This document shows positions 36,653-43,181 of a stretch of 64,000 nt of DNA, piece by piece. The notes under the pieces were generated by a model, which did not search any database, was not told where the DNA came from, and was given only the letters and a program-made list of their open reading frames with translations. The first letter of the stretch is position 1, and every line of letters begins with the position of its first letter. The DNA is from Perkinsus chesapeaki (taxonomy: Eukaryota; Perkinsozoa; Perkinsida; Perkinsidae): assembly GCA_013115145.1 (NCBI GenBank), contig JAAPAO010000009.1:1-64000 (forward strand), in the 5' to 3' direction. Both the position numbers and the translations under genes were made by a program.

Positions 36653-39600
36653 TTAAAATGGGACCAGTCTGTTAGGATTGACCCTCTCAATATCCGAGAA
36701 TGAGAACGACTTGCTCTCTGATGATGACACTACAAGTGTCTGCTTTGATGGGGCGTCCTTGCGCGGATGATTAGCGTTGCCTCCAGAATAGGCCAGCACC
36801 GACGGGTCCAGCTCCACTCGACTGTACTCAGGCTGCCACATAGCATCCTGTATCAATTTACCGATATCATCAGGAGGACTGAAGGAGAGTTACGACCCTC
36901 GGGAAAAGCATTGATCACCACCTTATCTGCGCAATGCCCGTATCGAGAGCCTCCTTGACGCAGGCTACAGCAATGGCATGGGAGAGCTCACGAATCCTGT
37001 CTATTTGGGGGTACAAGAGGCCTTGGGCCAGATCCTACAGAGCCAGGCTGATTTTTACTATAAATTTTCCGTTAGATCCTACCGTTTCAGTAACCTTCTC
37101 GGAGAGGGTCTTGGCCGCCAGGTAGAACATAGTATCGGGGATGCTTTTGAACTTGCCCACAATTGCGGCCAGACCAACTCCGGGGAAGATGTACCTGAGC
37201 TTGTGTGAACCACGCAAGTTCGATCCCTGCCACCGACATGTTGTTGCCTTGTCCAGGAATGTAAGTCTTGCCGTTAAAAGAGACGGGCTTGAAGGGTGAG
37301 CCAGTGGCGACCCATGCCTCACCGTTGGTCCACCTAACGCGACCAGTGCCCCAATAACAAAGCGCCGGCGCTAACATGTAAAGTTGCTCTGGCGTAGCCT
37401 CGGCCTTAGGCGTCGGGTTCGACAAGGCGAAAATGACCGGTGCTGGACAGTGCGAGTGCATTTCCTGAGGAAAAGGTATATCCCGGAATCCCCAAGTCTG
37501 CATGATGATACTTTGATGATTTCCTCCGTGAGCGTACCAAACTGTCCACTGAGACCTAGCAGAACCGTAGGCTTCACAACTTGAACAACTTCTAGGAGAC
37601 TGTGGAGAGGCTCGTCATCTCTACAGAACCGGACCTAACACACGACCAAGAGTCGGGCCGCCCGTTCTCGAAGGGCGGAGAGTCGAGTTCCGTGACCAGT
37701 ATTGCAATTCTCTACAGCGGCCTGTATAGCGGCACTACACGATTATTCAAGGTAGGTAAAGCAGTTTGAGGTAACATGAACGCCTTGGATGACAATAGCG
37801 ACCAAGAGTGATAATGTACTAAGCCTGATGGTAATAGGCAGTTGAAATATCATCTGCAAAGGCACGGAAGCTATCACGGGAAAGACTTTCGATTGCCGCA
37901 CAGCGAAATTCTCAACGGAGTTACGACTAAGCGCTGAATGCGTTGCCTTCCTATCTTATATTAGAAAGGAAGCTACCTTGTGCTCTTGCAGCTCTCCGGG
38001 CCTTTTCGAGGTGACAAGCCCTCTGGAATCAACCAGCCAGAACCGCTGTCTGGCCTCCTCGATGGTAAGACCTTGCTGAACCATGGCCGCCACAATGCAA
38101 TCGGCCACTCCCACAGCGGCGGATCCGGCACCGAAGAAGACAATGCGCTGGTCAGCGAGAACCTCGTGCTTGGCCCTCATGGCCGTGAGAAGGCCGGCAA
38201 GGGCCACGGAACCCGTGCCCTGGATATCGTCGTTGAAGCATAGGATCTGATCCCTGTAGCGCTGCAGCAGAGGGAAGGCATGATCGTTGGTGAAGTCCTC
38301 AAACTGGATCAGGACGCCGGGCCAACGAGATCGAACAGCATCGACGAACTCGTCAACAACGGCGTAGTACTCCTCGCCGGTGATTCTGTTGTGACGCTCA
38401 CCGAGGTAGAAAGGATCACCGAGAAGGTCCTGGTTGTTGGTACCGATATCGATGACAACAGGTACAGTACGTCCAGGGTTAATACCAGCACAGGCAACAT
38501 AAAGGGAAAGCTTACCAATAGGGATGCCCATACCATTCGTACCAAGATCACCCAATCCAAGAATACGAGAACCATCGGTTACAACGATAATATCGGCATC
38601 ACGGACATTGCTGTTCCATACGACTTGTTTGAAGTTGCCTTTTTCAGAGAGATTGAAGTAGATACCGCGGGAGCCCCTAAATATTCTATCAAAGTCCTTA
38701 CAAGCCTCCCCAACAGACGGTGTGTAGACTATCGGCATCAAACGGGTAATGTTATCGAGCAGCAGACGGAAGTACAAGGTCTCGTTCCTATTGTGAACCC
38801 CCTCCAAGTAGATATAGCGGCCAATGTCAGTGTCCTTAGTATCCAACTGCTTGAGACATCTTTGCACTTGCACATCAATATCGAGCACCTTCGGCGGCAG
38901 TAACCCTACGAGACCTAGCTCTTCCCTTTCGACCTCGGTGAAGGCCTCGGCTTTGTTATATACCGGGTTTCTCATGAGGTGAAGGCCTCTCTCGTAGACA
39001 GTAGCCACCTTGCCCGACTCAGGACCAGATAATCTCACGCCCGGAGTGTTCATTGGATCGATGACGCCCATTTGGATTTGAAGCAGGACTTGTCTGGCCG
39101 AGTTAAGAAAAGCATCTCGAACCCGCTGTCCGGCCTTGGCGGAGGTCTCCATGAACAGAATGCCATTTGATCTAGCAAAGGTGGCGGCCTCCTCAGCAGG
39201 AACTTCACGACCGAGAAGATCGGCCTTGTTACCGATAAGAACCTTGGTGACGTTCTTGTTGAGAGTTGGTAGATTTTCCTTTATAAACTCGATAAGCTCC
39301 TCGTAGGTTTTACGCTGTCCGACGTCGTAAACAAAAAAGATAACGGCGGAGCCTCTGCAGTAGGACGCGGTGAACTTGCCCCACACAGTGTCCCAAATCT
39401 GCAGCTTCACTCTGTTCTCGTCTAGATTGATAATCGTCTTTGAAAACTCCACACAGTCGGTCGGAGTCGAGCTCACCCTAAAGACATTCTCGGTAAACAT
39501 CAACCTCAGATTCGTCTTCCCGACCCCGGGTGGGCCTACTAGGGCATACTGGAGGGCATGAGTCCAACGATGGAGGTGCGGCGAGGCGCTCTGGCGATGG

Positions 39601-40390: not shown

Positions 40391-43181
40391 CTACATGAAC
40401 TGGCTTGGGTTCACTCTCTCCATATCGGTGAACGAGAAGGCCTTGTTCTGAATGGTACCAACACTGAGCTTAGTTTTATCCTGACTAGGACCAACACCAG
40501 AGCCTTGGCCGGAGAAGGCGAAGACTGAGGGGTCCAACTCAGTGTGGGCGTATTCGGGCTGCCACATGTGATCCCAGACGAACTTGTCAAGATCGTCAGG
40601 TCGCCTAAAAAAGTGAAATTACGCACAACATAGTAGTAGTGAAAAGCTCACTTGATGCAGGCGATGCCGAGATCGAATGCCTCCTTGATGCATGCCACCG
40701 CAATGTCGTGAGAAAGTTCACGGATACGAGTGAGCTGAGGGTACAAAGTGCCGTGAGAGATATCCTCTGGGGTGACTCTCTCGGCAAGAGTCTTGGCGGC
40801 AGTGTAGAACATCGAATCAGGGATCCACTTGAACTTGCCAACAATACCGGCAAGACCGACACCAGGGAAGATGTACCTGATGAGAGACAAATAAATGGAC
40901 TAGAGATAAGGAGACGTCGCCCTACATGTTATTGCCCTGACCGGCCTTGTAGACCTTGCCATTGTAAGTAACAGGTCCGAAGGGGGAGCCGGTGCACACC
41001 CAAGCCTTACCCTCGGTCCACCTGAAGGGAGAATGAAATACAAGTCAACAACCAAGAGGAGTGACGGCTTACGTATAGAGCTGCTCGGGAGTTGCCTCGG
41101 CCTTCGGTGTGGGGTTGGAAAGAGCGAAGATGATTGGCTCTGGGCAGTTAGCGTACATTGCCTGAGAACCGAATACACAAATGTCTATCAGCACCTTTTA
41201 GCTACCTTAACAACGTCCTCAGTGAAGGAGCCAGATTGTCCACTAAGACCAAGAAGGACAGTGGGCTTGACACTCTTGACCACCTCGAGGAGGCTGGTCA
41301 TAGGCTCCTCGTCATCGCGGCAATAGGGAACCTGGAATAAGACTTAATCACTATCGAAAAGTCTTGAGCAAGTCTCACCTTATGGTCCTGCATAGTGCCA
41401 CCGCGCTTCCACGTAACAAGGCCCTTGGAATCGACGAACCAGAAACGCTTCCTGGCGTCCTCGGGCGTAAGACCATCATGAACCATGGCAGCAACAATGC
41501 AGTCGGCAATACCAATAGCAGCAGCACCGGCACCGAGGAAGACGATTCTCTGGTCCTCCAACTTCTCCTTCTTAACCTTCATAGCGCTCACAATACCGGC
41601 GAGAGCGACGGAACCAGTTCCCTGGATATCATCGTTGAAACATAGCATGCTCTCCTGATAACGCTTGAGAAGAGGGAAGGCATGATCGTTGGTGAAGTCC
41701 TCGAACTGGATCAGGACGCCGGGCCAACGAGACTTCACGGCATCGACAAACTCGTCAACAACGGCGTAGTACTCCTCACCATTGATCCTGCTGTGACGCT
41801 CACCGAGATACATGTCATCACCGAGAAGGTCCTGGTTGTTGGTACCGATATCGATAACAACAGGTACAGTACGTCCAGGGTTAATACCAGCACAGGCAAC
41901 ATAAAGGGAAAGCTTACCAATAGGGATGCCCATACCATTCGTACCAAGATCACCCAATCCAAGAATACGAGAACCATCGGTTACAACGATAATATCGGCA
42001 TCACGAACGGGACTGTTCCAAACCATCTGCTTGAAATTGCCTTTCTCGGATAAGTTGAAGTAAAGGCCGCGAGCGTTACGGAAGATATGACCGAACATCT
42101 GGCAAGCCTTACCGACCACAGGAGTGTAGACAATGGGCATCATCTCAGTAATATGGTCACAAAGCAACTTGAAGTAAAGAGTCTCGTTCCTGTCATGCAG
42201 ACTCTCCAAGTAAATGTACTTCTCAATATCATTGGAGTTCTGCAAGAACTGCTGATAGCACCTTCTGGACTGGACGTCGAGATCGAGCACCTTAGGAGGC
42301 AGGAGACCGACCAGACCAAGATCTTCACGCTCACTGTCGGTGAATGCTTCAGCCTTGTTAACAACTGAATTACGGAGAAGGTTGCTGCCGCGCTCGGTGA
42401 CAGTTTGAACCTTTCCGTCATTCCGGCCAGCAGAGCGGATACCCTTGGTGGCGTTGGGGTCTATCATGCCCATCTGGAGCTGCAAGAGTACTTGCCTGGC
42501 AGAGTTGAAGAAGCAGTCTCTGACATGAAGGCCGCTCTTGGCAGAGGTCTCCATGAACAACAAACCGTTCTCGCGGGCAAAACTGGCGGCTTCCTCAGCG
42601 GTCACTTCACGGCCGAGCAAATCAGCCTTGTTGCCGATAAGAACCTTAGTAGTAGATCTGTCGAGTGAGGGAAGAGTGTCATTGATGAACTTGACCAATT
42701 CGTCGTAGGTATCACGCCTTGTGAGATCATATACGAAGAATATGATAGCTGCACCATGGCAATATGAAGAGGTGTACTTGCCCCAGACAGTATCCCACAT
42801 CTGAAGCTTCAGTCTCTCATTGTCGATGTTGACAATGGTCTTGGAGAATTCGACACCCTTAGTAGGAGTTGAGGCAACCCGGAAAACATTCTCAGTAAAC
42901 ATGAGTCTTAGATTAGTCTTTCCCACACCAGAGGGGCCAACGAGGGCATACTGGAGGGAATAGGACCAATCGTGGAGATGGCGAGAGGTAGTCTGTCGCT
43001 GGTAGAGCTCAGAAGTGAGAAGATGGTACCACTCAATCAGAGCCTCAGTGGGAGCCGCGGCGACAATATCCTGCATAGGTAGCAGGCGCACATCAAAGTT
43101 GGCCTTGCAGTTGACCGTCTGAACGCGGGTAGGCACAGAGAGCGATGCTGATGCAGACTTCTTAACAGTATTAGATGCCAT
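40391..43181 (-). CDS. Ras/Rab-like GTPase fused to malic enzyme, tandem copy 2
   Basis: ATG at 43181. In the first exon the leader covers residues 1-77 (shared ANFDVRLLPMQDIVAAAPTE) and the GTPase about 78-240: GPSGVGKTN at 82-90, TPTKGVEFSKT at 105-115, WDTVWG at 129-134, GNKADL at 183-188, ETSAKSG at 211-217. Malic enzyme starts near residue 285: HDRNETLYFKLL, MPIVYTPVVGKAC, GLGDLGTNGMGIPIGKLSLY, FNDDIQGTGSVALAG and FLGAGAAAIGIADCIV. Further exons give KPTVLLGLSGQSGSFTEDV, PIIFALSNPTPKAEATPEQL, RYIFPGVGLAGIVGKFK, GTLYPQLTRIRELSHDIAVA and the shared tail HMWQPEYAHTELDPSVFAFS ending MERVNPSQFM. The tail, like the GTPase, is not part of ordinary malic enzymes. Same order, strand and domain joins as copy 1, so fusion came before duplication. 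Confidence 0.9.

What the first reader, a model, noticed from the sequence alone, without database searches (positions are those of the whole stretch)
36653..43181. In-frame fusion of a Ras/Rab-like GTPase to malic enzyme, in two tandem genes
Both genes encode an N-terminal leader, a full small-GTPase domain (P-loop, NKxD, ETSAK) and malic enzyme in one unbroken exon of about 600 codons, so this is not an artefact of joining neighbouring genes. Malic enzymes are normally stand-alone; I know of no characterised GTPase-coupled malic enzyme. The fusion could place malate-to-pyruvate flux and NAD(P)H production under nucleotide control or recruit the enzyme to a membrane. A shared leader (ANFDVR.LPM.DIVAAAPTE) and C-terminal tail are also unique to the pair.
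Basis: partly seen in the sequence, partly recalled or inferred. Interest (0 to 1): 0.88.

Follow-up and report, generated by a model that had tools for sequence, protein, structure and literature searches.

The report
Rab-like domain fused to malic enzyme
In a single-celled shellfish parasite (Perkinsus), malic enzyme genes carry an extra front part that looks like a vesicle-traffic switch protein but has lost part of its switching machinery, so it probably works as a fixed attachment or assembly piece rather than an on/off switch.

Summary
The fusion is real. Both tandem genes encode leader + Rab-like domain + malic enzyme; the junction lies inside one exon of about 600 codons, and the malic domain continues in 5 and 6 further exons. 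The window is Perkinsus chesapeaki: copy 2 equals a deposited 843-aa "Malic enzyme". A diverged third paralog with 25 exons has the same architecture, and P. olseni has relatives of two of the three types. All three malic-enzyme loci found in this assembly are fused. By analogy with Rnd and RhoH this predicts a pseudoGTPase that binds GTP but does not cycle. Checked malic active-site positions are intact in the window copies; the third type has Phe for the catalytic Tyr. Five paper searches listed none on such a fusion.

The parts
40391..43181 (-). Copy 1 gene, GTPase-malic enzyme fusion, 850-aa model, 6 exons (41379-43181, 41206-41331, 41073-41161, 40926-41021, 40652-40876, 40394-40604; stop TAG 40391-40393)
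   Evidence: Spliced alignment to P0002, model checked (5 introns of 44-51 nt, no stop inside); Pfam; 89% identical to P. olseni P0001 over exon 1
36653..39749 (-). Copy 2 gene, GTPase-malic enzyme fusion, 843 aa, 7 exons (37977-39749, 37512-37634, 37376-37464, 37238-37333, 37083-37194, 36922-37034, 36656-36878; stop TAA 36653-36655)
   Evidence: Model identical over all 843 residues to deposited P. chesapeaki protein P0002
42969..43103 (-). Copy 1 conserved leader (ANFDVRLLPMQDIVAAAPTEALIEWYHLL...)
   Evidence: Shared with copy 2, P0001 and, diverged, with P0122 and P0123
39567..39701 (-). Copy 2 conserved leader
42489..42947 (-). Copy 1 Rab-like GTPase domain (PF00071)
   Evidence: best solved matches Rab14, Rab2B
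39087..39545 (-). Copy 2 Rab-like GTPase domain (PF00071)
   Evidence: best solved GTPase matches Rab2B, Rab14
42780..42797 (-). Copy 1 degenerate G3/switch II (WDTVWG), 4-residue deletion against Rab
39378..39395 (-). Copy 2 degenerate G3/switch II (WDTVWG), 4-residue deletion against Rab
41655..42197 (-). Copy 1 malic enzyme N-terminal domain (PF00390)
38253..38795 (-). Copy 2 malic enzyme N-terminal domain (PF00390)
41856..42005 (-). Copy 1: stretch nearly identical in DNA to copy 2 (1 mismatch in 150), probable gene conversion
   Evidence: Sliding codon comparison, pS 0.0 here against roughly 0.5-1.0 outside the tract; mismatch count
38454..38603 (-). Copy 2 counterpart of the conversion tract

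Best explanation
These are members of a Perkinsus family of malic enzymes carrying, N-terminally, a short conserved leader and a Rab2/4/14-like GTPase domain that has become a pseudoGTPase. Shown by sequence: a single coding frame; G1, the switch I Thr, G4 and G5 kept; G3/switch II core deleted; checked malic active-site residues kept in copies 1 and 2. Inferred: the domain holds GTP (or a guanine nucleotide) permanently without hydrolysing it or switching. It serves as a fixed docking or assembly module that places or stabilises an active malic enzyme oligomer, rather than as a GTP-controlled valve on malate flux. The third paralog, which also has Phe in place of the catalytic Tyr, is inferred to be catalytically impaired and may act as a regulatory or scaffolding subunit.
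For: Fusion inside one open exon in two genes. Same architecture in a third locus (25 exons; 1009 of 1009 residues of P0122 reproduced by the splice model) and in two P. olseni proteins. All three malic-enzyme loci found in the assembly are fused (a lower bound, 5 candidates scored). The malic domains of the five fused proteins form one group in a tree of 37 rows (support 91/84, below the tool's star; 92% of 200 bootstrap trees), consistent with one fusion followed by duplication. Same 4-residue G3 deletion in 5 of 5 fused proteins against intact DxxG in 20 of 20 other own-genome GTPase loci whose G3 can be read whole. Selection on the GTPase part: between the copies dN is 0.19 in the GTPase (pS 0.74) and 0.17 in exon-1 malic (pS 0.56, lowered by the conversion tract). 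Precedents: pseudoGTPases of class ii (Rnd family, degraded near switch II) bind GTP permanently without hydrolysis (PMC5593906, passages); [quoted passage not shown] Catalytic Tyr: Tyr112 of ME2 is called the residue purportedly facilitating proton transfer (PMC12523003, one passage); it is Y in 37 of 39 malic rows and F only in P0122 and P0123.
Against: No biochemistry, expression or localisation data. Nucleotide binding is predicted from motifs only; the loss of DxxG could also abolish it. The precedents differ: PMC13236570 ties the behaviour of Rnd and RhoH also to the lack of Gly12. Switch I is altered after its Thr in copy 2 (TDCVEF) and more so in the third type (TTAINS, TTATNS). The leader and linker have no assigned function, and docking partners are unknown. 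The tree's malic sample is biased towards hits of copy 1 and the third type sits on a long stem (1.36).
Confidence: 0.55

Rival explanations
1. A nucleotide-switched malic enzyme: the GTPase domain cycles between GTP and GDP and turns malate decarboxylation on or off, or moves the enzyme between membrane and cytosol.
For: P-loop, switch I Thr, NKAD and ETSAK are present and Rab-type sequence features remain; the GTPase part is under purifying selection.
Against: The DxxG and catalytic Gln of switch II are deleted in 5 of 5 fused proteins. No C-terminal prenylation cysteine: the window chains end NPSQFM and NRLVPF. The third paralog has also lost the malic catalytic Tyr.
Confidence: 0.12
2. A class i pseudoGTPase: the domain no longer binds nucleotide and is kept only as a folded protein-interaction or oligomerisation module.
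For: Loss of G3; precedent of p190RhoGAP pG1 and pG2, CENP-M and fungal LIC as non-binding pseudoGTPases (PMC5593906, passages).
Against: G1, G4 and G5 are conserved even in the paralog with about 35% identity, which would not be expected if binding were lost. The non-binding p190 pG1 domain has all five motifs degraded.
Confidence: 0.27
3. An artefact: neighbouring genes joined by assembly or gene prediction, with separate products in the cell.
For: No transcript or peptide was seen here; deposited names and models are probably automatic, and two P. olseni models look mis-spliced.
Against: The junction lies within an open frame in two genes, recurs in a third locus with a different exon structure and in a second species. 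Conserved GTPase sequence continues into malic sequence in all five.
Confidence: 0.03

Closest known systems
Malic enzyme (PF00390 + PF03949; e.g. solved chains 6ags, 9e6m, 2aw5; that 6ags is E. coli and 2aw5 human ME1 is recalled)
   Same: Whole malic enzyme length matched (P0002 residues 249-788 to 9e6m, 526.8 bits); checked active-site residues kept in copies 1 and 2
   Different: About 250 extra N-terminal residues with leader and GTPase-like domain; an extra C-terminal tail in both window copies; the third paralog has Phe for the catalytic Tyr
Rab2/Rab4/Rab14 small GTPases
   Same: Best solved-structure sequence matches (Rab14 136.7 bits, Rab2B 136.5 bits), 39.6-43.8% identity of copies 1 and 2 to Rab14 and Rab2B; Rab-type KLQ(I/M)WD and YC(R/H)G(A/S)A stretches
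   Different: Four-residue deletion that removes DxxGQ; no C-terminal prenylation tail; fused to an enzyme
Class ii pseudoGTPases / GTPase-deficient Rho proteins (Rnd family, RhoH)
   Same: Degraded switch II with P-loop, NKxD and SAK kept (sequence of the fused proteins compared with what the papers say; no alignment to Rnd or RhoH was made)
   Different: Rab- not Rho-derived, and a domain of a metabolic enzyme rather than a free signalling protein; nucleotide state untested
pseudoRabs of Entamoeba (EhRabX3, EhRabX10)
   Same: Parasite Rab domains that lack G motifs (PMC5593906 passage; PMC8514894 abstract)
   Different: EhRabX10 is described with four non-conserved G motifs; here only G3 is lost; no enzyme fusion is mentioned in what was read

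Membership tests
Malic enzyme | PF00390 and PF03949 over most of their length | tested here: met
   P0002: 1-182/182 and 1-257/258; P0122: 2-181/182 and 18-253/258
Malic enzyme | Catalytic residues (Tyr, Arg, Lys, Glu-Asp, Asp-Asp, Asn, Asn-Asn motifs; choice and roles recalled except Tyr112) | tested here: met
   Copy 2 has the commonest residue at all ten positions checked in alignment A1; copy 1 has it at those in exon 1 and in the spliced model. Third paralog: F for Y342 and S for N692 (not met there)
Malic enzyme | Malate oxidative decarboxylation and cofactor use | not testable with these tools
   needs an enzyme assay
Rab GTPase | Ras-superfamily G domain with best matches among Rabs | tested here: met
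   PF00071 1.7e-34 and 3e-35; of the 8 solved sequences at E 1e-30 or better, 7 are named Rab2, Rab4 or Rab14 and one (4rke) is named GH01619p
Rab GTPase | G3 motif DxxGQ in switch II | tested here: not met
   4-residue deletion in 5 of 5
Rab GTPase | C-terminal prenylation cysteine(s) | tested here: not met
   Window chains end ...NPSQFM and ...NRLVPF after the malic domain; P0122 and P0123 end ...DDALY and ...DDAAY
[quoted passage not shown]
pseudoGTPase class ii | Binds nucleotide but does not hydrolyse it | not testable with these tools
   Motif retention only suggests it

The most novel reading that the evidence does not exclude
A lineage of protists put its whole malic enzyme complement under a GTP-loaded, non-cycling Rab-like domain. 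The domain acts as a permanent tether that builds membrane- or complex-bound malic enzyme assemblies, in which a doubly inactive paralog (no G3, no catalytic Tyr) serves as a structural or regulatory subunit.
Probability: 0.2. Interest if true: 0.72.

Novelty: new variant of a known kind. Interest (0 to 1): 0.55.

Why it matters
If right, it is a central-carbon enzyme with a built-in pseudoGTPase, a combination not found among the papers listed in five searches. It would show how a trafficking GTPase can be recruited, stripped of its switch and kept as a module of metabolism. Since all three malic-enzyme loci found in this assembly have it, the fusion probably shapes pyruvate and reducing-power supply in these parasites. 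The prediction (bound GTP, no hydrolysis) is testable in one protein preparation.

Tried and rejected
Artefact of joined genes: rejected (open exon, third locus, second species). Nucleotide switch: demoted once the G3 deletion was seen. Pseudogenes: rejected for the window copies (long open frames, amino-acid identity kept while synonymous sites are near saturation). Assembly or misread cause for the G3 loss: rejected, because it is the same in three loci and two species and other loci of the genome are intact. Looking for the fusion outside Perkinsus: the region search with the copy-1 leader and GTPase gave 3 proteins among 2377 candidates, and that with the third paralog gave 7 among the 7994 candidates sharing most words. 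In both the only fused ones are Perkinsus. Mitochondrial targeting of copy 1's basic N-terminus was considered, not tested. Cofactor preference: not settled. A paper search on mutants of the catalytic Tyr found nothing with all five terms.
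Full report
Observation. Two tandem minus-strand genes lie at 40391-43181 (copy 1) and 36653-39749 (copy 2). Stop-to-stop frames of 629 and 601 codons each match PF00071, PF00390 and the start of PF03949, so the GTPase-malic junction lies within one exon. A protein-to-genome spliced alignment written here (GT-AG introns imposed) gives 6 exons and 850 aa for copy 1 and 7 exons and 843 aa for copy 2; starts, stops and exons were checked. Exon 1 therefore does not hold the whole malic enzyme: about two thirds of the NAD-binding domain is in later exons.

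Organism and databases. The copy 2 model is identical to P0002, deposited as Malic enzyme of Perkinsus chesapeaki with Ras and malic Pfam domains; P0001, a partial protein of P. olseni, is 89% identical to copy 1 over exon 1. The architecture is thus already in public annotation, but no paper discussing it was among those listed: searches (Perkinsus + malic enzyme, 3 of 3 listed; titles and abstract starts read, passages of one; 15 of 17 listed; 10 of 276; 10 of 25; 8 of 8), listings only. The library is open-licence PMC, so absence from print is not shown.

A third paralog. Own-genome searches found another locus on contig 296. Its model and the deposited P0122 (1009 aa, 25 exons, all residues reproduced) have the same NFDVxxMPMQD leader, GTPase and malic order. 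It is deposited under the name Survival of motor neuron--splicing factor 30, and P. olseni has a close relative, P0123 (75% over the searched region; 80% leader+GTPase and 90% malic identity). Leader+GTPase identity to copies 1 and 2 is about 35%, malic identity about 46%. In this 35.4 Mb assembly PF00390 is found at three loci only, all fused; completeness of the assembly is not known, and intron-rich genes could be missed.

The GTPase domain. The best solved sequence matches are Rab14, Rab2B, Rab2A and Rab4. Aligned with Rab14 and Rab2B, all five fused proteins keep GxxGVGKT, the Thr of switch I, NKxD and SAK, but have a 4-residue gap right after WDTV, or FDTY in the third type, which removes DxxGQ. 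Control: of 62 Ras-family matches in the genome, 2 are the window copies and 1 the third paralog. Of the other 59 I read the 31 whose profile range reaches or comes near G3 (19, 12). Twenty show G3 whole: 15 with DTAGQ and 5 of Arf type (DLGGH or DVGGQ). Six are broken by an exon end at G3 and 5 do not reach it. The remaining 28 matches were left out because their range does not cover it. So 20 of 20 readable loci keep DxxG, and the loss belongs to the fused family, not to the genome. The copies differ at about 74% of synonymous sites in the GTPase part, yet amino acids are 73.5% identical there (dN 0.19, against 0.17 with pS 0.56 for the malic part of exon 1): both domains are under selection.

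The malic domain. In alignment A1 (41 rows; 34 hand-picked malic proteins from the 117 listed as P0004-P0120, 5 fused, 2 GTPase-only) copy 2 has the commonest residue at all ten positions checked. Copy 1 has it at those in exon 1, and at the rest in the spliced model. P0122 and P0123 have Phe where 37 of 39 malic rows have Tyr, and Ser for one of two Asn. This Tyr lies in the VYTPTVG motif, aligned to 2aw5 (NADP-dependent malic enzyme); Tyr112 of ME2 is called the residue purportedly facilitating proton transfer (PMC12523003, one passage). That it is the same Tyr, and the roles of the other residues, are recalled. A tree of 37 rows (5 fused, 24 of the 117 listed proteins, 8 others) puts the fused malic domains together with support 91/84, not starred. 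They fall among the bacterial-type sequences, but the sample comes from hits of copy 1 and long branches are present, so origin from bacteria is not claimed.

How it most likely works. Shown: one coding frame, conserved in two species and three loci, with an active-looking malic enzyme in copies 1 and 2 and a GTPase domain without G3. Inferred: by analogy with class ii pseudoGTPases such as Rnd (PMC5593906, passages) and with RhoH (PMC13236570, passages), the domain binds GTP and does not cycle, and serves as a fixed tether or assembly module. The third paralog, impaired in both domains by sequence, may be a regulatory subunit. A cycling switch is the weaker reading; a non-binding scaffold is the main rival. 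The novelty is the combination, not the parts.

Limits. No transcripts, peptides or localisation data were available. Protein searches depend on shared words and on protein length; all three were used. No listed row is named P. marinus, which may reflect its gene models, the caps or missing names.

Noticed in passing
41856-42005 and 38454-38603: 150 nt with one mismatch between the two copies (149-nt identical run), in a wider tract of low synonymous difference, while synonymous difference outside it is roughly 0.5-1.0: probable recent gene conversion. P. olseni P0001 differs from both copies nearby (VTIDVGTNNPDLLND against VVIDIGTNNQDLLGD).
   Followed up: partly
L009 (own contig 296): Third fused paralog is deposited in NCBI under the name 'Survival of motor neuron--splicing factor 30'; Pfam shows GTPase and malic domains (plus a sub-threshold RsgA match), so the name looks wrong.
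   Followed up: partly
P0001 and P0123 (P. olseni): Both P. olseni models have a stretch within the malic domain that does not align with the other members and looks like a mis-spliced exon.
   Followed up: no
P0003 (EukProt transcriptome protein): A 1022-aa protein with two malic enzyme domains in tandem, from a eukaryote not named in the output.
   Followed up: no
44338-44799 +: RRM (PF00076) open frame just beyond the start of copy 1.
   Followed up: no
21843-22832 -: ORF of 329 aa with class-I glutamine amidotransferase / peptidase C26 match.
   Followed up: no
5583-7310 -: Open frame of 575 aa without a Pfam match; five more of the nine frames of at least 250 aa also have none.
   Followed up: no
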